This document shows, in pieces, positions 18,405 through 55,170 of a DNA stretch of 64,000 bases. Location of the stretch: NCBI GenBank assembly GCA_963682025.1, contig OY821519.1:108542264-108606263 (forward strand). The letters run 5' to 3'. Each line of letters opens with the position of its first letter. Positions within the stretch are counted from its first letter, which is position 1. The notes below the pieces were generated by a model. It had not been told where the DNA came from. It saw only the letters and a program-made list of their open reading frames with translations, and ran no database searches. This DNA comes from Cordilura impudica. Its lineage: Eukaryota; Arthropoda; Insecta; Diptera; Scathophagidae. Made by a program: the position numbers and the translations under genes.

Positions 18405-18945
18405 CACAACACGGCCAGACATTTGGTTAAGCTCTACCCGTGGTTTATATGCCTTCCACATTTTATAAAATCTTTATTTACGGGTCAGAAATAGTATCAC
18501 ATGCATTTTTGCCAACTGGCCAACTATCTGAGGAAGCTCAAGAAGCTCGAAACAAAGACTTTAAATATTTTAGAGAACAATATGCGTGAAAATGCAGTCG
18601 CGAGAAGTCGAATGAAGACATTTTCACTTTCATGTTCTACTTCGTTCAGATTCGTTATATACCGCCAAAGGAAGAAGTTATAAGCAAAAAATTCATCATA
18701 TACGACAATTGGCACTAGATTTAATAATTTTGCCAAACACAACAGGCAAAGAAGATTAAAATGAAGATGATGACTATAAAAGTGATGATGATTATAATGA
18801 GTGTGAAACATGATGTGTTGGTGATCACAATAATGAAAAGTTTGCTGATATGGAGAATAAAAAATATAATAATAATAAAAAAATGCATATACCTGATATT
18901 AAATTTATTATAAGACAAAAACGTATTTATTTGTTTTTTTTTAAT
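18405..18945. other. Non-coding spacer
   Basis: Open frames on both strands (18501-18683 plus; 18524-18918 minus) are compositional (His/Ile/Phe runs from GATGATGATTATAATG-type repeats). No domain and no splice pattern seen. Confidence 0.4.
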
Positions 18946-19534: not shown

Positions 19535-19625
19535 CTGTAAAGAAAAAAATTTTAAAATTGAAATTTACTATAACCAAAAGTTCAAGAGAAATATTTTATA
19601 AAATAAAAAAAACACAAAAACTTAC

Positions 19626-20714
19626 AACATCTGTAACGATAATTCCTACTAGCAGAGGCGTTAATATGGGTATAATACTGGCCGAGGTATTAATAATACC
19701 CATCAAGATACCAGCATGATTTGGTGACAAGTCAATGGTATTTAGACCATTTCCTATAGTGTAACCAGCATTAATACCAACATTTACCGTCATTAGTACA
19801 ATGGCCAATGTTCTTTGATCTTTGCCAACAAAACCAATACCTATTAAGCCCAGGGCCGGCCCCCAAAATGCCAATGAATTGAAACTTTTTCTTATGGCAT
19901 TTAGAGATAAAATTTTACGTTGCAGTAAAATGTCAGCTGATACGATATATACAAATGACATGCACCACATAGCCAAATAGGGTAAAGCCGAAAACAAAGC
20001 ATTATTTTTCATGTCCATGCCCAGAACACCGCTCATATATGAAGGTATTTCAGCTTGTAAAGTAGAATAGCTCCAAGCTTCAGATGATCTTGCCACCAGT
20101 AGTGCCCAAAAGGGCCATGAAGTCAATATAGCTTTCCAGGGAATTGGAATTAATTTTGGTTTATCACTTGCACTATCACGTTCCTTGAGAGTACTTTTCG
20201 AATTTTCAATATAATTTAGTTCGGCTTCTGATATTAACTTTGATTCCTTGGGACTATTAGCTGCAAATAAAAGCCATAGTACACACCAGAATATTCCAGC
20301 AGCACAGGATACATAAGATATACCTGGCCATCCCAATGATGAGGCAGCTATAGTCCCACTAAGAAACATTGCCATTAGAGTACCGCATTCAGAGCCATTA
20401 CCGGCTAAAGCTCCCAAACGATTTCTTTCATTAACCGGACACCAGTTTGCCAAATGAGCATGCACGCATGGAAGCATAAGTCCTTGGAAGAGACCTTGTA
20501 CTACACGTATGCCACAATACACCTTCCAACCACCCCAGTCCACGGTGAAAGGTATAAGCAGTGCGAATAGAGCTGAACCGATTGTAGAAACGAATATTGT
20601 TGATTTGGCACCAAAACGACGACAAAAATAACCACCAGGAAATTGTGTCACAAAGTAACCCCAAAAGAAACTGGATAAGATGTAGGACTTTTCCATTTCA
20701 TTCCAATCATATTC
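19626..20714 (-). CDS. SLC17-type MFS transporter, main exon
   Basis: A 363-residue exon bounded by a good acceptor (ttctag at 20715-20720) and a gtaag donor at 19621-19625. It starts EYDWNEMEKSYILSSFFWGY, the conserved loop and helix 2 of SLC17 proteins, then FVTQFPGGYFCRRFGAKST (the helix 2-3 RxGxK-type MFS motif), GLFQGLMLPCVHAHLANWCP (helix 4 signature), a central hydrophilic loop (KESKLISEAELNYIENSKST), and NHAGILMGIINTSASI near the end. About ten membrane segments lie in this exon. Family members move organic anions or phosphate with Na+ or H+ across plasma or lysosomal membranes; the substrate cannot be read from sequence. The frame is intact, so the gene is probably functional. The exon lacks the expected start codon context: the ATG at 20696 is internal to the EYDWNEMEK block. 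Confidence 0.93.
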
Positions 20715-29012: not shown

Positions 29013-29159
29013 GCTTATTTTTGATTTTTTATTTTAAATTTTTTAATTTTTCATATTTAATTTTTTATTTTTCGTTTTGTATTTTCCTTTTTCCATTTAT
29101 TATTTTTTATTTCTCATTTTTCATTTTTTATTTTTCATTTTATATTTTTAATTTTCTAT

Positions 29160-31350
29160 TTTTCATTTTTCATTTTTCATTTTTAATTTTTAATTTTTAA
29201 TTTTTAATTTTTAATTTTTAATTTTTAATTTTTAATTTTTAATTTTTAATTTTTAATTTTTAATTTTTAATTTTTAATTTTTAATTTTTAATTTTTAATT
29301 TTAATTTTTAATTTTTAATTTTTAATTTTTAATTTTTAATTTTTAATTTTTAATTTTTAATTTTTAATTTTTAATTTTTAATTTTTAATTTTTAATTTTT
29401 AATTTTTAATTTTTAATTTTAATTTTTAATTTTTAATTTTTAATTTTTAATTTTTAATTTTTAATTTTTAATTTTTAATTTTTAATTTTTAATTTTTAAT
29501 TTTTAATTTTTAATTTTTAATTTTTAATTTTTAATTTTTAATTTTTAATTTTTAATTTTTAATTTTTAATTTCTAATTTTTAATTTTTAATTTTTTAATT
29601 CTTAATTTTTAATTTTTAATTTTTAATTTTAATTTTTAATTTTTAATTTTTAATTTTTAATTTTTAATTTTTAATTTTTAATTTTTAATTTTTAATTTTT
29701 AATTTTTAATTTTTAATTTTTAATTTTTAATTTTTAATTTTTAATTTTTAATTTTTAATTTTTAATTTTTAATTTTTAATTTTTAATTTTTAATTTTTAA
29801 TTTTTAATTTTTAATTTTTAATTTTTAATTTTTAATTTTTAATTTTTAATTTTTAATTTTTAATTTTTAATTTTTAATTTTTAATTTTTAATTTTTAATT
29901 TTTAATTTTTAATTTTTAATTTTTAATTTTTAATTTTTAATTTTTAATTTTTAATTTTTAATTTTTAATTTTTAATTTTTAATTTTTAATTTTTAATTTT
30001 TAATTTTTAATTTTTAATTTTTAATTTTTAATTTTTAATTTTTAATTTTAATTTTTAATTTTTAATTTTTAATTTTTAATTTTTAATTTTTAATTTTTAA
30101 TTTTTAATTTTTAATTTTTAATTTTTAATTTTTAATTTTTAATTTTTAATTTTTAATTTTTAATTTTTAATTTTTAATTTTTAATTTTTAATTTTTAATT
30201 TTTAATTTTTAATTTTTAATTTTTAATTTTTAATTTTTAATTTTTAATTTTTAATTTTTAATTTTTAATTTTTAATTTTTAATTTTTAATTTTTAATTTT
30301 TAATTTTTAATTTTTAATTTTTAATTTTTAATTTTTAATTTTTAATTTTTAATTTTTAATTTTTAATTTTTAATTTTTAATTTTTAATTTTTAATTTTTA
30401 ATTTTTAATTTTTAATTTTTAATTTTTAATTTTTAATTTTTAATTTTTAATTTTTAATTTTTAATTTTTAATTTTTAATTTTTAATTTTTAATTTTTAAT
30501 TTTTAATTTTTAATTTTTAATTTTTAATTTTTAATTTTTAATTTTTAATTTTTAATTTTTAATTTTTAATTTTTAATTTTTTAATTTTTAATTTTTAATT
30601 TTTAATTTTTAATTTTTAATTTTAATTTTTAATTTTTAATTTTTAATTTTTAATTTTTAATTTTTAATTTTTAATTTTTAATTTTTAATTTTTAATTTTT
30701 AATTTTTAATTTTTAATTTTAATTTTTAATTTTTAATTTTTAATTTTTAATTTTTAATTTTTAATTTTTAATTTTTAATTTTTAATTTTTAATTTTTAAT
30801 TTTTAATTTTTAATTTTTAATTTTTAATTTTTAATTTTTAATTTTTAATTTTTAATTTTTAATTTTTAATTTTTAATTTTTAATTTTTAATTTTTAATTT
30901 TTAATTTTTAATTTTTAATTTTTAATTTTTAATTTTTAATTTTTAATTTTTAATTTTTAATTTTTAATTTTTAATTTTTAATTTTTAATTTTTAATTTTT
31001 AATTTTTAATTTTTAATTTTTAATTTTTAATTTTTAATTTTTAATTTTTAATTTTTAATTTTTAATTTTTAATTTGTTAATTTTTAATTTTTAATTTTTA
31101 ATTTTTAATTTTTAATTTTTAATTTTTAATTTTTAATTTTTAATTTTTAATTTTTAATTTTTAATTTTTAATTTTTAATTTTTAATTTTTAATTTTTAAT
31201 TTTTAATTTTTAATTTTTAATTTTTAATTTTTAATTTTTAATTTTTAATTTTTAATTTTTAACTTTTAATTTTTAATTTTTTATTTTTAATTTTTAATTT
31301 TTAATTTTTAATTTTTAATTTTTAATTTTAATTTTTAATATTTAATATTT
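29160..31350 (+). repeat. TTTTTAA heptamer satellite, ~2.2 kb
   Basis: From about 29185 to 31345 the sequence is almost only TTTTTAA, roughly 300 units. Sparse variants are 6-base TTTTAA units (e.g. near 29300, 29420, 30045, 30620, 30720), an extra T near 29590 and 30570, and single changes (a C at 29573 and 31263, a G at about 31076). The left border grades through TTTTTCA units (28665-28700, 29160-29180), suggesting the A variant arose from a C variant and expanded. Confidence 0.97.
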
Positions 31351-31799
31351 AATTTTCCAACTGCAGTTTTGTAAAATTCAACAGCATGTGTCATCTACGT
31401 ATAACTAAAGCAAACAACTGCCGGGGCTCTTGTGGGGTTGTTGAATTATGTATCTATTATACTTTTATATTGTGAAGTTTTCAACGTTTCACAGCAAAGG
31501 GTTATTGAATTAGCTGAAACAATTTTATATTATAATTTTTTCACCAATACAATCATAAGTCACACCGATTTGTCTTACGGCTCACATGTTACGCTATTTT
31601 TGTGATTGTATATTGAAATAGAAATTTACCCCCCTGCGCGTATAGATGTTTACATATCAAAAACTTTTGCGCGTTCATAAATGTACTAAAATGTCATTTC
31701 ATTATTTGACAGAGTAGTACTGTCATAAAACATTGCTTTGCCTCATGAAACACTTTGCCTTTGCAGTGTTGCATTGCAAACTGCATATATGAACTGCAT

Positions 31800-42459: not shown

Positions 42460-43340
42460 TTTTTACGTAGGAGGTGCCACGCTCACTAATCCCATCCCGC
42501 CCGATTTTTATTGGACTACTCACATTAATATCTAATGGACTCATGCAAAATGTCGAGTCTTTCCCTTTTATAGTACACCAGTTATATGATATTAGATATC
42601 TACTTTGCATGGGCGGTGCTATGCCCACTGCTCCGATCACGCCCATTTTTTTGTTCGACTAATCACACAAAGAACCTATGGGCTCACGTAAAGCCACAAA
42701 GCTCTCTCTTTTACAGTACTCCAGATATATGACATTAAATAGTTACTTTGCATGGGGAGTGCCACGCCCATTGGTGTGAACCCGTCAATTTTTTGTTCGA
42801 CTACTCATACTAAGATCTGATAGGCTACTGCAAAGTGTCAAAGCTTCCTTTTTTAACACACCAGTTATATGATATCATATATTTACCTTGTATGGGCGGT
42901 GCCACGCCCACTGCTCCGATCACGCCCATTTTTTGTCTAACTAATCAAATTCATAACTTATGGGCTCACACAAAGTCCCAAGACTCTCACTGTCACAGTA
43001 CTCCAGATATATGTCATTTTATATTTACTTTGTATGGCAGGTGCCACGCCTATTGGTCCGATACTGCCCATTTTGCATCCGACTACTCACATTAATAATA
43101 GGTGACATCAGAAAAATTTTAAAAGCTCTCTCTATCACATTACTCGAGATATATAATATTGAACTATTACTTGTAAAGGAGATACCACGCCCACTTATCC
43201 GATCCCGCCCATTTCCGGCGTAGCTACTAATACTAACAATAGGTGACCTGACACGAATTTGCAAAGCTCTCCCTATCATAGTACTCAATATATGTACACG
43301 ATATTAAAAATTTACTTTGTATGGGAGGTGCCACGCCCAC
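42460..43340 (-). repeat. ~144-bp tandem repeat within Helitron (6+ units)
   Basis: The motif TTTGTATGGG-x-GGTGCCACGCC recurs at about 42603, 42748, 42888, 43029, 43171 and 43317 (spacing 140-146). Alternate units are more alike (42603 with 42888; 42748 with 43029), hinting at a dimeric ~285-bp higher-order unit. Such internal tandem repeats are known in non-autonomous insect Helitrons. Confidence 0.85.
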
Positions 43341-46746: not shown

Positions 46747-46853
46747 TCAGTTTTCATTTTCTATAAATACGGGTTGAAAATTTTGGAATTTTGCCAATTC
46801 ATGTATTGTTTTAACGCGTTTTATTTGTAAAATTCAATTCTACATATAACAAA

Positions 46854-47996
46854 ATGTCAAAATACAATTTAATAAGTAGTGCAGCCGCACAAGTTCCCAC
46901 ACCATGTCAAGCCGATGATATTCCGGATCCTGTTAATAATAACGGACAAGATTTAGATACAACAATGCTAGATCCAATAGGTACAATGCCATCATCTTCT
47001 GATGATAATCAGCTATCTGCTATTATGGCTGGTATTAATGATCTCGCGAGATCTGTTGCCGAAAGTCGCCGTGACATTGATTTCCTCAGAGGGCACGCAC
47101 AACAACAACCACTTGGAAGTTATATACAACAACATCATCAGCGAAATCTTCCAGAAAACCGTCCTCAACAACCGTTTATACCTGAAGAACATTTTCAGCT
47201 AAACAATCCAATGAGAATTCCTTCTGAGGATTCTCCATCTTCTAATTATTATAAACTATATGATCTACCAGTATTTTCGGGAAAGCCAGAAGAATGGCCA
47301 TTATTTTATGCCAACTTTAAAGATAGCACTGAAACATCCAATTACAGTCATCATCATAATTTAATGCGTTTACAAAAATGCCTTGTTGGTGACGCAAAGG
47401 AAGCTGCTACTTCAATGCATATTTATCCTAACGATGTATCAAAGATAATAGATGAACTTGAATTCCGTTTTGGACATGCCGATCTTTTGGTCCGCTCCCA
47501 ATTACAAATTATTCAACAATTTCCTCCTATTACTGCCAAGAGGATGGATCAAATAATTTCCTTTTCAACGAAGGTGAGAAATTTCTTAATTCTGCAAATT
47601 GTTCACATCATTTGTTAAATTCAACTCTGCTTGAGGAATTGGTTGCCAAATTACCATTTGATAAGCAATATGAATGGGCAAGGGAATCTATGGTAATAAA
47701 ACCTTTTCCAACAGTAGGTGATTTCTCTATTTGGCTTGGAAAATTAGCTAAAGTTGTAAGTGTTATGTCAATAAATGTTCCTCATAATAGCCAATACGTC
47801 CTGTGATGTTGATTGAAGAGCAATTTCAAAAACAAACCGCTAACTGTTATGTATGTCAAGGACAACATACTATTTATAAATGTAAAATTTTCACTCAAGA
47901 GCTGCCTGTCAATGGGAGAAGGTAAAAAAATTTAAGCTGTGTTTTTGTTGTTTAAAAAAGGGCCATGGTTCATCTAATTGTCGCTCTAAGAAGATA
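46854..47996 (+). pseudogene. BEL/Pao gag with zinc knuckles, frameshifted
   Basis: Starts at ATG 46854. An acidic/Gln-rich N-terminus is followed by LPVFSGKPEEWPLFYANFKD (about residue 135), the DUF1759 capsid-like start, then LMRLQKCLVGDAKEAA and IIDELEFRFGHADLL. The frame shifts near 47578; the same domain continues with NSTLLEELVAKLPFDKQYEW (47612-47806). Further shifts occur at about 47806 and 47900. The knuckles NCYVCQGQHTIYKC and LCFCCLKKGHGSSNC follow at 47840-47990. This would form the particle shell and bind RNA. Confidence 0.85.
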
Positions 47997-48788
47997 TGTG
48001 GTATCGACAGCTGCCAACGCCCTCATCACCAAACACTTCATGAGAATAAAAAAATTCAAGCCTCTTCGACGAAAACAAAGCAACCATTGCTTAATTGTAG
48101 AATTCAACATATTGAAGGAAGTAAACTTTTTAAAATATTACCAGTAAAGATATTTGGTCCTGTCGATTATTTTAAAGTTTATGCTATATTTGATGAAGGA
48201 TCTTCTATTTCCTTGCTGGATGAAAACATTGCCAAATAACTGGGTCTCAAAGCAGAACAATCTACACTCACTCTTCAATGGTATGGCGATAATGTAGTAT
48301 CTGAGAAATCCTTCAAAGTAAATTGTGAGATTGAAGGTGTTAGTGAACCAAATATTCGTTTTGGCCTGAAGAATCTGCAAACCGTTAAGTATTTGAATTT
48401 ACCTGTGCAGTCCTTCAGAAAGGAAATCTATACACATATGAGCAATCTTCCAATCGAGAATTATAATAATGCCTGTCCTATTCTATTACTTGGTTTAGAT
48501 AATATTCACTTAGCCATTCCTGCTGCCATCAAAGAGGCTGGTGAATTGTCTCCGGTTGCAGTAAAAACAAAGCTCGGATGGGTAGCATATGGTCCCACAA
48601 ATACATCATCCCCTTCAATTTCAACAGTTTCACATTTTCAAAATAAGCAGCCAACACAAGAGATCCATGATATGATAACAGACTTTTTTGCCACTGAGAA
48701 TTTCGGTACCAATCCTGTAACAAAACCCCTTCTTTCTGACGAAGATCAAATCGGCCGTAATATTATGGAGAAAAAATTAAACGTATAG
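47997..48788 (+). pseudogene. BEL/Pao aspartic protease region, nonsense mutation
   Basis: In one frame after the knuckles, ILPVKIFGPVDYFKVYAIFD leads to DEGSSISLLD (48195), the protease active-site segment (D-x-G-S type, DUF1758). TAA at 48237 interrupts it (AK*LGL). The open stretch 48393-48788 has ACPILLLGLDNIHLAIP, the second protease block, and KTKLGWVAYGP. It ends in a frameshift within an A6 run at 48771-48776, after which the RT frame begins. Confidence 0.82.
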
Positions 48789-50935
48789 GTGAACGATTCG
48801 AAATTGGGCTTCTCTGGAAAAAGTATCCTCCAGAGTTACCTTCAAATTACATCATGGCCGAGAAAAGGTTATTTACTATTGAAAAAAAAATACACCAAGA
48901 TGAAAAATTCGCTGAGCGATACCGCGCAGAGATAGTTAAGTACGTAGAAAAAGGTTATGCCCGTAAGTTAACAACAGATGAGGTAAATGATAAAAGGTAT
49001 CCCATATGGTACTTGCCACAATTTGGTGTTGTTAACCCTCATAAGCCAGAAAAGCTTCGGGTAGTATTTGACGCTGCAGCAAAAACTTCAAATATATCGT
49101 TAAAGATTTCATTAGTGAAAGGACCAGAGCAAGCAAAACCACTACTCAATATTCATCTTAAATTTCGTCAAGGAATTATTGCAGTTGCTGCTGATATTAG
49201 AAAGATGTTTACACAGGTAAAAATTCGAGATGATGATCAAAATGCTCAGAGATTTCTCTGGCGCGACGCCGATTTTAACAAACATATTCAACATTATGTC
49301 ATGTCTTCAATGACATTTGGAACTGTGTGTTCCCCTTGTTGTGCAGAGTATGTTAAAGATCAAAATGCTAATGAATTTGCACATATATATCCTGATGCTG
49401 CTGAAGCCATAATTTACAAACATTATGTGGATGACTATGTATGTAGTTTTAATAACGAAGAAGCTGCTATACGTGTATGCAAAGAAGTTGTTCAAATTCA
49501 TTCAAAAGCTGGTTTCGAATTACGTGGGTTCCTATCCAATTACCAAAGTGTAGAAGCTTCACTTAATCCAACTGCTATTGGTCCATCAAATCCAGTTAAT
49601 ATGGAAAAACAAGCTACAATTGACAAAATTCTCGGTATGTTTTGGAATAAACATGACGATACATTCGAGTTTAAAACGAAGTTTAATTGCCTTAATCCTA
49701 ATGTATTTAATGAAGTTCGTGTTCCTACCAAAAGAGAAATGCTAAAGATTGCAGTGACGGTTTTCGATCTATTTGCTTTGATTGCAGATTTCCTACTATA
49801 CTCTAAAATAATGGTGCAAAATTGTTGGAAGCAAGATATTGGATGGGATGACCCCATTCCAGATTCTTTACATAAGAAATTTAAAGCTTGGTGGAGAGAA
49901 TTTAAAGAAGTTAACAATTTTAAAGTCCCAAGATGCTTATCTCCAAATTTTTCTAAAGCCTTACATGTTCAACTTCATGTTTTCGTCGATGCTAGCCAAG
50001 ATGCTTTCGCAGCAGTTTGTTACTTAAGAATTATTCATGATGGTGGAATTGATGTTTCTTTCGTCATTGGAAAAATTCGGTGTGCCCCAAAGAAATTAAT
50101 AAGTATTCCTCGTTTAGAATTGCAAGCAGCTATCTTGGGAGTTCGTATAAGCTAATTAGTAACCACAATACAAAAATTCCAAATATCTTCAGTACATTAT
50201 TGGTCAGATTCGCAAACCGTTATTCGTTGGATTTATTCTACAGAACGCCGCTTTAAGGCTTTTGTAAGCCATAGAGTGGCTGAAATTCTAGAAAATTATA
50301 CACCAAGTCAATGGAAGTGGGTTCCAACTAACCATAATTCTGCTGATGCTGGTACACGTCCCACTTATCCTCCAAAACTTATCCACCATAGTTTATGGAT
50401 AACGGGCCCAACATTTTTAAAGGAAGATGAATCCCGTTGGCCTCATCTTAATGTCGAAAAAATTGATATATTACCAGAAGAAGTAAAGCCATGCCTAGTT
50501 GTTATTAACATTCCTGATAATATTATTCAGTATTCTCGATTTTCCTCTTACATAAAGTTGAAGAGAACAATTGCTTGGATTCTTCGTTTTCTTAAAAGAT
50601 GCCGTATACCAGATTGTTTGAGCATAATAGAACTAACAGCTGCAGATATTGTTTTATGTCGTTTGGTACAAAGCGAATGTTTTGCAAACGAAATACATTC
50701 TATCAAGCATTTCCAAAAAGTTCCTAAATCTAGCGCAATATATTCGTTGGTGCCTTACTTAGATGAAAATGGTCTTCTAAGAGTTAATGGTCGTTTAGAT
50801 GAAGCTTTGTATTTGCCTATTGATGCCAGAAGACCGGTAATATTACCGCAAAAGCATTATGTTTCAGAGCTTATAATGAGATACTATCATAACAAAAACT
50901 ATCATCAGAACATGTCAATAACTATCAATGAGTAA
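48788..50935 (+). pseudogene. BEL/Pao reverse transcriptase, RNase H and H2C2 region
   Basis: The RT starts with ERFEIGLLW (48790), then KGYARKLT, YLPQFGVVNPHKPEKLRVVF (RT motif 1), VAADIRKMFTQVKI (motif A aspartate), MTFGTVCSPCCAEY, and HYVDDYVCSF (the YVDD catalytic box, about 49421). VPTKREMLKIAVTVFDLFAL belongs to the Peptidase_A17/connection region. RNase H follows from LHVFVDASQDAF (49975), with VHYWSDSQTVIRWI (50195) after a TAA at 50153-50155. HNSADAGTRPT and an H2C2-type zinc domain follow, interrupted by TAA at 50933. The three stops are in the same frame as the flanking protein, so they are point mutations rather than indels. Confidence 0.9.
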
Positions 50936-50983
50936 CGCCAAAAATATTGGATTCCTCACATAAAATCAGTATATAAGAAAGTA

Positions 50984-51982
50984 GTGAAGACATGCGATGT
51001 TTGTAAATATGACAGTGCCAAGCCAAACATGTCTCTAATGGGTCAATTACCCCTGGATCGAGTTACGCCATTTGTACGTCCGTTTACCTATACAGGAGTT
51101 GATCTGTTTGGTCCATTTAATGTTTCTATTGGACGGCGTAAGGAAAAGAGATGGGCAGTTATATTTACCTGTTTGACTGTCAGAGCAGCCCACATTGAAT
51201 TAGCGGCTGACCTTTCTGCAGATAATTTCATTTTGTGTTTTCGAAATTTTATAAATCGTCGTGGAACACCTGTGAGTATTCGAAGCGACAATGGAACCAA
51301 TTTCATTGCTACCCAGAAGCTTTTGAAGAAGGCACACAGGATTTTAAATATTGATGAAATAACTCAAGAGACTACAAAACATAATATTGATTGGATTTTC
51401 AATTGTCCAGCTAATCCGAGCTCTGGAGGGGCCTGGGAAAGGTTAATTAGAATTGTAAAACGTCTACTACTAAAAACCCTAAGAGAAGAAACCCCTCGTC
51501 TTGAAACATTACGAAGTGTTGTTATTGAAGCCGAGAATATAATCAATTGTCGCCCTTTGACAGAAATTCCAATTTCTTCCGAAGATGATGAACCCATTAC
51601 GCCTAACCATTTCTTATTTGGTTGCCTTAATTCAACGCAAACTCCGGATACTACAGACGAAAACATATACTTAAGAAAACAGTGGAAACTTGCACAAAAT
51701 TTGAAAGATAGATTATGGAAAAGATGGGTAGTTGAATTTCTTCCTCAGCTAATGCATAGACCAAAATGGAGAGACAAAAATTCACCCATTCAGACCGATG
51801 ATATTGTTATAGTTTTGGATTCAAGTCTGCCAAGAAACCAGTGGCGCAAGGGTCGAGTTATGAAAACATATCCATCGAAAGATGGCCAAGTACGATTTGC
51901 AGACATTAAAACCCAAAATGGGGTCACTCGTCGCCCGGTCTCAAAGTTAGCAATATCTGGTTCACGAGGTTGGGAATGTTAA
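50984..51982 (+). CDS. BEL/Pao integrase and C-terminal domain (open 332-aa frame)
   Basis: CDVCKYDSAKPN ends the zinc domain. The catalytic core shows YTGVDLFGPF (first D), IRSDNGTNF (second D) and SSGGAWERLIRIVKR (the E), the D,D-35-E set of retroviral-type integrases. The end contains DDIVIVLDSSLPRNQWRKGR and VTRRPVSKLAI, the DUF5641 tail of BEL integrases. All catalytic residues are present in this segment, but it has no own promoter or start and depends on the broken upstream frame. The stop lies in the right LTR. Confidence 0.9.
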   Translation: MKTCDVCKYDSAKPNMSLMGQLPLDRVTPFVRPFTYTGVDLFGPFNVSIGRRKEKRWAVIFTCLTVRAAHIELAADLSADNFILCFRNFINRRGTPVSIRSDNGTNFIATQKLLKKAHRILNIDEITQETTKHNIDWIFNCPANPSSGGAWERLIRIVKRLLLKTLREETPRLETLRSVVIEAENIINCRPLTEIPISSEDDEPITPNHFLFGCLNSTQTPDTTDENIYLRKQWKLAQNLKDRLWKRWVVEFLPQLMHRPKWRDKNSPIQTDDIVIVLDSSLPRNQWRKGRVMKTYPSKDGQVRFADIKTQNGVTRRPVSKLAISGSRGWEC

Positions 51983-52575: not shown

Positions 52576-52636
52576 AAAAAGATAAAATAAACGAAATAAA
52601 ATGTTTTAATTGCACAATATAAACTTAATAAGAAAA

Positions 52637-52726
52637 AATATATACGAACAAAATTTGAGAAGAATCAGTGGAATATTTTTGTTTTTTGATAGATTTAAGG
52701 GAAGATGGGGAAGCAGCTCTACATGG
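52637..52726 (-). mobile_element. Family A element, minus, part 1 (before Transib)
   Basis: The complement reads GTAGAGCTGCTTCCCCATCTTC and AAATCTATCAAAAAACAAAA, the middle of family A. The palindrome end is missing on the left. It continues at 54722. Confidence 0.8.
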
Positions 52727-53277
52727 CACAGTGGTCCCAATGAGAAATATAGCACGAAAAAAGTCGTATTTCCGGATTGTAAAAAAGTGAAAAATTTGCT
52801 TGGTTATTTAATGACAAGTCTCCACCGTGCATAACGGTTAAAAAATTTTTTGTATGTTTACAATATTGGCACTGCAGTATTGTGTTGAACACAAACAACT
52901 GTTTTTGTTTGTTTTTCATAAGAGATCAGTCAATAATCTAGTGTGATTTTGAGAGGCTGTAAAATAAAGTGAAAGAATTTTCTTTAATATTTCTTTAATG
53001 TATTTATACAATAGAGGTATGTATTTTTTTAATTCTTGATGTGCCGTTGATCTAATATTAAGTTTAGACAACAAAATGTATGAAAGTTTAAATGTATTTG
53101 TTAATTGTGTAATTTTATCAGTATTGCAACTTGTGTTAGACTTTTAAATGTGAATTTCACCAGCTTTTGCTCCAATTGTTGTGTCGTCATCATCTATAGA
53201 GTGTGAGTTATTAAATGTTTAAAGAACCATCTGCCGATTTTTGCCTAACACACTAAATTTCTCATTTTAAGGTTGCA

Positions 53278-53826
53278 ATGTCTATCACCAAAAGGGATTT
53301 GTTCAACGTTTGGTACACTGAAAAGGACCAAAAGAAAAAAAATTATACTTTTATATATTACATTTTCATCAAAAGTGGTATAGAAAATGACGACTATAAA
53401 AATAAACTAAAACAAGCAGCTCGAAATTTCGTTAGTAAATTGTCGAAAAAGTGGACGCAGGCACATCGAACAAAGAATGTTTTTGAGCCTACTTATAAAT
53501 GTTGGTTGGATGAATTGTTTGTCTTTCCTAGTAAAGCTTCATCGATGTTCGACGAGGAAGAAGACTCGGATGCACCGTCAACATCGAAGCATGGACGACC
53601 TTCCAAAGTGTTTTTGGAAGGGGGCCAAATATCGAAGCAATTGAAAACGAAGTCTCTTATGAAAACTTGCTCTCCAGAAGAGTTAATATTTGCTGCTGCA
53701 AGTAGTCTTTACAAAGCAGGCAAAAGAGTTGCTGCAGGCGTTATTAGAACTATAGATGTTTTTTCAAAAAGGCCAGTAAAAATAAAAATATTGCTAGGTA
53801 CACCATCCAACAGTTCACGGCACTAA
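53278..53826 (+). pseudogene. Transib transposase N-terminal part
   Basis: The frame begins MSITKRDLFNVWYTEKDQ at 53278 and runs 182 residues. It has a basic DNA-binding-like region (SKLSKKWTQAHRTKN, YKCWLDELFVF), an acidic linker (EEEDSDAPSTSKHGRPS), and LMKTCSPEELIFAAASSLYK followed by AGKRVAAGVIRTI. The last residues after KIKILLG are out of frame. In complete Transib proteins this region precedes the first catalytic aspartate; neither it nor the second is found, so the core was deleted near 53795. Confidence 0.7.
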
Positions 53827-54382
53827 AAATAATGACAACACCGCCAGAAGGTTTTTCAAGGAACCACGTTTAGCTTCACAAATAACTGGCGTTGACGAAA
53901 ATTTAATTAGAAAACTTGGCGTCATTTTAAGATGTATGGCATCCGGTTATGCAATTAATGCAGAATTGTTTCGAATGTATGCTTTCGCAAAAGCGGAATT
54001 ATACGTGGAATTGTATCCGTGGTATTGGATGCCATCAAGGGTCCACAAAATATTGACTGATGGTGCAGACATTATTGAAAAAGCTACCCTGCCCATTGGA
54101 ATGCTATCCGAGGAAGCGCTTGAATCTCGCTACAAAGATTTTAGATATGTTCGAGAACATCATCCTCGAAAAATGTCACGGGAAAGTAACATGCAAAATC
54201 TTTTTAACAATATGCTTTTTTCATCGGATCCATACATATCTTCTCTTTCAACAAAGCCGACGAATAGAAATATAGAAACATTATGCCCTGACTCAAATGT
54301 TTTGCATTCTGATACTTCTATTTTGAATCTGCAAAACGATTCAGATGACGAAACCGATTCTGAAACAAACGCCGATGAATAA
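53799..54382 (+). pseudogene. Transib transposase C-terminal part with RAG1-like Glu region
   Basis: From 53799 YTIQQFTALK can be read, then after a shift in an A5 run (53825) KNNDNTARRFFKEP, VDENLIRKLGVILRCMASGY, LYPWYWMPSRVHKILTDGAD, and MLSEEALESRYKDFRYVREH, SRESNMQNLFNNMLFSSDPY, with an acidic tail ending at 54382. The block LSEEA-x-E-x-R-[NY]KD followed by x-R-x2-R-x-[MF]-SR corresponds by position to the RAG1 segment holding the third catalytic residue. A glutamate is retained here, while the usual asparagine before KD is tyrosine. Confidence 0.75.
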
Positions 54383-54721
54383 ATATTTAAATACAATAAG
54401 AATGTTAATTATTTTAAATAAAAAAACAAACATCTGAAAACACAACAATATTTCTATTCGTTCCTTTTTTGAGTTCACGGTAAATATTTTAATATTTTGA
54501 ATAAACAAAACACACAAATCAACACATAATATTATCAATGAATATGAAATAATTTTGCAGGTTTTATATCAGTAATTTTTATATGATAAGTGCCACACCC
54601 ATTCAATTGAATCCGCCCATTTTTGGTGAGAGATCGTGCCATACAAGTTTGTATGCTTCTAGGCACTTTTAAAAAGAGTTATGACTTTTTTCGTGTTACA
54701 TTTCTCATTGGGACCACTGCG

Positions 54722-55170
54722 CATGGGGCCTATGACTAAGAGTTGTCCCATAGGGATCGTTTTTGGACTATCCATTAATGGATGTTATAAACGCATACAA
54801 ACCCAATTTGAGTAAGATCTATATGACAATTTGGATTTTATTGCAATTTATGTCGATTTCATAGGGGTCATTTGTATGGGGGCTAGTTCTGAACATGGAC
54901 CGATTCTCACCAATTTCAATAGCGTTCATCAAAGCTTGAATATCAAATTTCATCCAAATATATTCATATTTGCGACCTGCAGTTTGATTAAAAGATTTAC
55001 ATGGACACACAGACGGATGGACGGACGGACATCGTTAAATCGAATAAGATATAGATTCCTGATTCGATCGGTATAATAAAAGATGGGTCAAGGTCAAATA
55101 TTTTTGGCAGTTACAAACAGCATCACAAAGTCATTATACCCAAACCACATAGTGGTATAGGGTATAATTA
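54722..55170 (-). mobile_element. Family A element, minus, part 2 (after Transib)
   Basis: CATGGGGCCTATGACTAAGAG resumes the sequence cut at 52726. It continues through TTTGCGACCTGCAGTTTGAT, CACACAGACGGATGGACGG (the GTCY array in reverse) and ends ACCACATAGTGGTATAGGGT. Confidence 0.85.

What the first reader, a model, noticed from the sequence alone, without database searches (positions are those of the whole stretch)
52727..54721. Internally deleted Transib with RAG-signal-like ends (CACAGTG) and a 5-bp target duplication
Seen: left end CACAGTGG, right end the complement of CGCAGTGG, 39-bp TIRs, CATGG on both sides, inserted in a family-A copy whose two halves abut cleanly. The 39 bases split as a heptamer, 23 bases and an A-rich nonamer-like end (AAAAAAGTC), the layout of a 23-RSS. 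Inside, the transposase keeps its N-terminus and a C-terminal block aligning with the RAG1 region of the third catalytic residue, while the part that should hold the two aspartates is missing near 53795. Known: Transib elements have CACWRTG-like ends, 5-bp duplications and a RAG1-core relative. Inference: the element is a non-autonomous derivative that could be moved by a full-length partner elsewhere in the genome.
Basis: partly seen in the sequence, partly recalled or inferred. Interest (0 to 1): 0.75.

Follow-up and report, generated by a model that had tools for sequence, protein, structure and literature searches.

The report
Broken RAG-like jumping gene in fly
A fly chromosome carries a broken copy of a Transib transposon, a known relative of the machinery that builds antibody genes; it has lost two of its three catalytic residues, one of its ends looks damaged, and no intact partner of its own family was found, so it is an ordinary fossil with one modest lead on how such transposon ends are recognised.

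Summary
Its 39-bp ends have the heptamer / 23 bp / A-rich layout, CATGG lies on both sides, and the C-terminal frame matches the solved HzTransib transposase (E 4.7e-43). Relatives in the host genome (a calyptrate fly, inferred) show a 944-bp deletion at 53810/53811 that removes both catalytic aspartates and shifts the frame; the glutamate remains. The census of its family gives 7 loci (6 insertions) in one assembly, none with an intact gene. No other locus found carries this deletion, so no mobile non-autonomous family grew from it here. The right end reads CGC where the 10 other family ends read CACAGTG, and it has lost a TAGC block present in 59 of the 62 Transib ends I listed. Part of the locus was later duplicated on another contig. 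Other Transib families of the genome have open frames of 704-723 aa. Verdict: new member of a known kind, low interest. The lead: the best-conserved inner block of these ends is TAGC near 24-27, inside the RSS-style spacer, and not the nonamer.

The parts
52722..52726 (.). left copy of the 5-bp target-site duplication CATGG
52727..52765 (+). left TIR: CACAGTG, 23 bp, AAAAAAGTC
52766..53277 (+). presumed 5' untranslated region, shared with genomic copies
53278..53810 (+). N-terminal part of the Transib transposase gene, with a GRPSK motif in the region aligned to the N-termini of P0020, P0024 and P0026; the frame runs on out of register to a stop at 53824-53826
53810..53811 (.). deletion joint: 944 bp present in L023 are missing here, no microhomology seen; both catalytic aspartates lost
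53811..54379 (+). C-terminal part of the transposase gene (other frame; stop 54380-54382)
54122..54124 (+). codon of the retained catalytic glutamate (aligns with HzTransib E436); the conserved Asn three residues later is Tyr
54683..54721 (-). right TIR with three private changes: CAC to CGC in the heptamer, position 23, and TAGC to TAAC
54722..54726 (.). right copy of the target-site duplication CATGG
52634..55170 (.). family-A repeat interrupted by the insertion (outer limits approximate)

Best explanation
This is a dead, internally deleted copy of a low-copy Transib family (family 1) in a calyptrate fly. A Transib transposase cut an element out and joined it into a family-A repeat with a 5-bp stagger, giving CATGG on both sides (shown by ends, duplication and empty sites; the chemistry is inferred from HzTransib and RAG). 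Later, or during the move, 944 bp holding both catalytic aspartates were lost at a joint without microhomology (shown; faulty gap repair is the inferred cause). The family fell silent and every copy found has decayed by substitutions, deletions or insertions. Here the right end lost its CAC, which probably ended any chance of being moved (inferred). Part of the repeat together with the transposon's first 351 bp also exists on another contig as a copy of the same insertion (shown).
For: The C-terminal frame hits HzTransib (6pqn) at E 4.7e-43, the only PDB sequence matched at E up to 1. The N-terminal frame matches N-termini of 8 of the 44 homologues then held at E 5e-11 to 3e-6 (E-values for that small set). 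Copy L023 has the missing segment with CDG and MIDGK motifs at the two aspartate positions. Ends were found in 16 of 17 genomic Transib copies scanned; 9 of these have both ends, and 8 of the 9 have a perfect 5-bp duplication. The TIR census finds 10 ends and 0 for the reversed control. None of the 7 loci has an intact gene. L026 shares 444 bp at 98.4% including two flank changes (AAGGGAAG, TACATGG) not seen in the other aligned family-A copies of the window, and one derived Transib base.
Against: The census allows up to 3 mismatches in one assembly and misses even one known end (the right end of L021, with a one-base deletion), so more diverged or unassembled copies would be missed. The two half-frames themselves match no Pfam family above its cut-off, and the N-terminal half has no real PDB match. 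The effect of CGC on Transib cleavage was not tested. When the deletion occurred relative to the insertion cannot be decided from one copy.
Confidence: 0.93

Rival explanations
1. A still mobilisable non-autonomous element, served by a transposase of this or another Transib family in the genome.
For: Left TIR intact, right TIR 36 of 39 identical to it. Other Transib families have open frames of 704-723 aa.
Against: Right heptamer is CGC and its TAGC block is broken. No second locus with this deletion joint. No intact family-1 gene found. The family with those open frames shares little with these ends beyond CACAGTGG and TAGC.
Confidence: 0.05
2. The element inserted in full length and the middle was deleted later in place, as against inserting already deleted (a sub-question of the best explanation).
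For: The joint is unique among the 7 loci; another copy, L025, has a different deletion.
Against: The duplicate L026 stops at element base 351, so it cannot date the deletion.
Confidence: 0.6
3. The transposase remnant has been co-opted by the host (domesticated DNA-binding fragment).
For: Both half-frames are still open (182 aa from the ATG and 194 aa), and the N-terminal half keeps GRPSK.
Against: The window copy has the most private substitutions of the family (25 of 1084 and 27 of 909); the joint shifts the frame; and the joint was found in this copy only.
Confidence: 0.02

Closest known systems
HzTransib of Helicoverpa zea (PDB 6pqn and related entries; the name HzTransib for this entry is recalled, the table calls it putative DNA-mediated transposase)
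   Same: C-terminal core homologous, with catalytic Glu at the same place; homologue P0024 aligns over the whole core
   Different: Window copy lacks the segment with both aspartates and is frame-shifted
Transib families hopper and transib2 of Drosophila melanogaster
   Same: 5-bp target duplication; hopper has a GC-rich target motif (PMC3276498 passages: CCANTGG)
   Different: Not compared by sequence here
Vertebrate 23-RSS / RAG1
   Same: CACAGTG heptamer (RSS consensus recalled), 23-bp interval, A-rich block; weak RAG1 matches of homologues (PF12940 in 4 of 6 scanned, only P0018 at the cut-off)
   Different: Both ends have the same 23-bp interval, no 12/23 pairing; a nearly fixed TAGC block lies inside the interval

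Membership tests
Transib superfamily | Transposase homologous to Transib/RAG1 core | tested here: met
Transib superfamily | 5-bp target-site duplication, GC-rich | tested here: met
   CATGG; 8 of 9 two-ended copies perfect, one of them (CTTTA) not GC-rich
Transib superfamily | TIRs beginning CAC with an RSS-like heptamer | tested here: met
   Left end and the other 9 family-1 ends CACAGTG (10 of 11); this copy's right end CGC
Transib superfamily | DDE catalytic triad in the family's longer copy | tested here: met
   L023 shows CDG, MIDGK and SEEALESRNK, in more than one frame
Autonomous Transib | Intact transposase gene | tested here: not met
   944-bp frame-shifting deletion
Mobile non-autonomous (MITE-like) Transib family | Several insertions sharing the same deletion | tested here: not met
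   Joint found once; the 10 TIR ends found in the genome lie in the 7 known loci
Functional 12/23 RSS pair | One 12-bp and one 23-bp spacer | tested here: not met
   Both ends 23 bp

The most novel reading that the evidence does not exclude
In these fly Transibs the transposase reads the heptamer CACAGTG+G and a second block, TAGC near positions 24-27, while the A-rich 'nonamer' at 31-39 is a lineage-specific feature. If so, the RSS nonamer arose as a replacement of an inner contact that lay within what became the 23-bp spacer.
Probability: 0.2. Interest if true: 0.45.

Novelty: new member of a known kind. Interest (0 to 1): 0.2.

Why it matters
By itself it is one more transposon fossil. Its value is as a check: with the host genome in hand, the claim of an element ready to be moved by an intact partner finds no support. 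The same genome offers at least eight Transib families by my grouping, with target duplications and several long open transposases, on which the link between Transib ends and antibody-gene signals can be tested.

Tried and rejected
Rejected: (a) another superfamily - the significant hits of both frames lead to Transib/RAG1-like proteins. (b) A chance 39-bp inverted repeat - 0 of 100 shuffles. (c) L026 as a second insertion into the same target - it shares flank changes otherwise seen only in the window copy, so a duplicate is likelier. (d) A hidden MITE family - none at up to 3 mismatches. Led nowhere: Pfam on the two half-frames themselves (only a sub-threshold DUF6642 match); PDB on the N-terminal half (only chance-level hits); phage records and viral contigs (no relative). 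Kapitonov and Jurka 2005 is not held, so its TIR consensus is recalled, not read. A paper search for Transib with TAGC and terminal inverted repeat found 0 papers; a four-base word is a poor search term, so this is weak evidence of novelty.

Full report
What is there. Window 52727-54721 (1995 bp) is bounded by 39-bp inverted repeats that match at 36 of 39 positions and flanked by CATGG on both sides. Each end splits into a heptamer (CACAGTG left, CGCAGTG right), 23 bp, and AAAAAAGTC. A pattern covering both ends hits only these two places in the window, and nothing in 100 dinucleotide shuffles. The flanks are two parts of a repeat ('family A'). With one CATGG removed, the joined flanks align through the site with four other family-A copies in the window (near 7.7, 12.2, 35.6 and 45.0 kb), which read TATGG once. 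Of the other aligned copies, those near 28.8 and 33.8 kb break off at or just past the site, one near 63.2 kb begins at it and one near 21.4 kb does not reach it. The duplication claim is supported by the four paralogous empty sites.

What it encodes. The frame from the ATG at 53278 to 53823 (182 aa) matches the N-termini of 8 of 44 Transib-like proteins held at that point; the best are P0020 at E 5e-11 and P0024 at E 2e-10, E-values for that small set. Frame 53798-54379 (194 aa) matches the solved HzTransib transposase 6pqn at E 4.7e-43 over residues 316-462 of the chain. P0024, a homologue of both halves, aligns with 6pqn over the whole core and weakly with RAG1 and RAG1L chains. Of six homologues scanned, four match Pfam RAG1 at E up to 0.01, only P0018 at the curated cut-off, and P0023 and P0026 not at all. 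The window's own half-frames match no Pfam family above its cut-off, and the N-terminal half has only chance-level PDB hits. A review gives the HzTransib triad as D126, D225, E436 (PMC6941560, passages seen). The 6pqn chain numbers fit these with an offset of 17 (my inference from the printed alignments). On that numbering the glutamate is kept here at 54122-54124, and both aspartates fall in the missing part. The conserved Asn three residues after the glutamate is Tyr here.

Host genome. The window lies in an unnamed 1.49-Gb assembly. A transporter ORF at 19599-20714 is 79% identical to Musca domestica and 73-76% to Glossina, Calliphora and Lucilia, so the host is a calyptrate fly (inference). 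A DNA search of the assembly gave 53 matches, 40 of 129 candidates scored. The close ones fall at 7 loci: the window, L021 (C2:247.57 Mb), L022 (C1:264.96), L023 (C5:68.3), L024 (C1:296.29), L025 (C2:136.4) and L026 (C1:279.97). An independent TIR pattern search with up to 3 mismatches found 10 ends, all in these 7 loci, and 0 for the reversed pattern. It missed one known end, the right end of L021 with a one-base deletion, so it is not exhaustive. The family is small, and no miniature relatives were seen in this assembly.

The deletion. Matches break at element base 1084/1085, window 53810/53811. L023, L021 and L022 carry further sequence there. Against L023, 944 bp are missing (L023 1610-2553), without shared bases at the joint. 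L023 reads YKWGCDGSSG and LTMIDGKVF in the missing part, the two aspartate motifs. Since 944 is not a multiple of three, the halves are out of frame. No other locus found has this joint; L025 has its own, different deletion.

Is there a partner? None of the other family-1 loci has an intact gene. L023 has a 496-aa open stretch ending before the glutamate, then a stop and a frame shift, and its match ends at element base 1922, so its right end is missing. L021, L022, L024 and L025 have stop-free stretches of at most 113, 264, 224 and 146 aa matching P0018 (stretches of 60 aa or more considered). L026 holds only the first 351 bp. Substitutions private to each copy are 0.65-2.97% where three or more other copies could be compared (0.28% for the short L026), highest in the window copy (25 of 1084 and 27 of 909). 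Family 1 looks extinct in this assembly.

The right end. Seventeen Transib copies were scanned for ends and 16 gave at least one, 25 ends in all; 23 begin CAC, the exceptions being this element's right end and the left end of L032. Within family 1, 10 of 11 ends read CACAGTG. PMC7204232 states that the first three bases CAC are invariant and functionally critical in RSSs and in Transib and RAG-like ends, and vital for cleavage (passages seen). This end also carries TAGC changed to TAAC. I therefore think this copy was no longer movable; this is inference, not a cleavage test.

Duplication of the locus. L026 matches the window over 444 bp at 98.4% (7 differences), comprising 351 bp of Transib and 93 bp of family A. 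It shares two flank changes (AAGGGAAG, TACATGG) not seen in the other aligned window copies of family A and one derived Transib base (position 113). I read it as a copy of the same insertion, so family 1 is 6 insertion events. L026 lacks the right side, so its own target duplication cannot be checked.

Other Transib families of this genome. A protein search with P0018 returned 88 matches, 87 candidates scored of 38,487 at first look, so counts are lower bounds. Several frames are long and open, e.g. 714, 723, 704 and 713 aa for L049, L056, L061 and L063, and copies of that family are up to 98.9% alike. Of the nine copies with both ends, eight have perfect 5-bp duplications (CATGG, CGCTG, AAGCG, TAGCG, GGGCG, CGATG, CGACA, CTTTA) and one differs by a base (GAACG/GAATG). 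In one search a matching 5-mer and 20 of 40 matching end bases were part of the search condition, so its 22 rows (of 30 loci) are not independent evidence. The mostly GC-rich 5-mers agree with published Transib targets (CCANTGG for hopper and transib2, PMC3276498; CGNCG for moth Transib, PMC4735498; passages seen).

A lead. I grouped the ends by eye into eight families and compared representatives (17 ends listed, 15 counted by column; two family-3 ends left out). Bases 1-8 are nearly fixed. TAGC stands at 24-27 in 14 of the 17 and at 23-26 in the other three. The A-rich block is present in families 1-4 but not in 5-8. With one end for each of seven families (family 8, whose TAGC is shifted, left out; family 3 by its right end; family 5 by L065), mean conservation is 0.98 for bases 1-8, 0.62 for 9-22, 1.0 for 24-27 and 0.70 for 31-39; a run of four columns as conserved came up in 68 of 20000 column shuffles. 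Over all 62 ends, with repeats of the same locus removed, TAGC is at 24 in 56, at 23 in 3 and absent in 3: this element's right end and the left ends of L053 and L055, so two of the four family-5 left ends lack it. Many of the 62 are near-identical copies. Shared ancestry could give the same pattern, the block was chosen after seeing the data, and the representative of family 5 was one that keeps it. It nonetheless suggests that the inner recognition site of these elements lies inside what the RSS reading calls the spacer. PMC8355894 describes Transib ends with heptamer and nonamer-like parts and 20-22-bp symmetric spacers, and some with 12/23 asymmetry (passages seen), so the RSS-like layout itself is not new.

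Verdict. New member of a known kind, interest 0.2.

Noticed in passing
window 18437-18640: Second, more distant Transib relic (51% protein identity to P0001 over 68 residues).
   Followed up: no
L022 5842-6060: Another family-1 copy also ends inside a family-A repeat, about 6 bp from the window's insertion point: possible target hot spot at the GC-rich TATGGGGCC.
   Followed up: partly
L049, L056, L061, L063: Transib family with 704-723 aa open frames and copies up to 98.9% alike: perhaps active recently.
   Followed up: partly
window 46815-51982: BEL/Pao-type retrotransposon just upstream, in several frames (Peptidase_A17, RVT_1, DUF5641 in the two frames scanned); described only.
   Followed up: no
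window 29017-31356: Array of about 335 copies of ATTTTTA, 97% matches, 2.3 kb.
   Followed up: no
window 42473-43340: Tandem array with a unit of about 142 bp.
   Followed up: no
window 19599-20714: Phosphate-cotransporter-like MFS gene, 79% identical to Musca domestica; places the host among calyptrate flies.
   Followed up: partly
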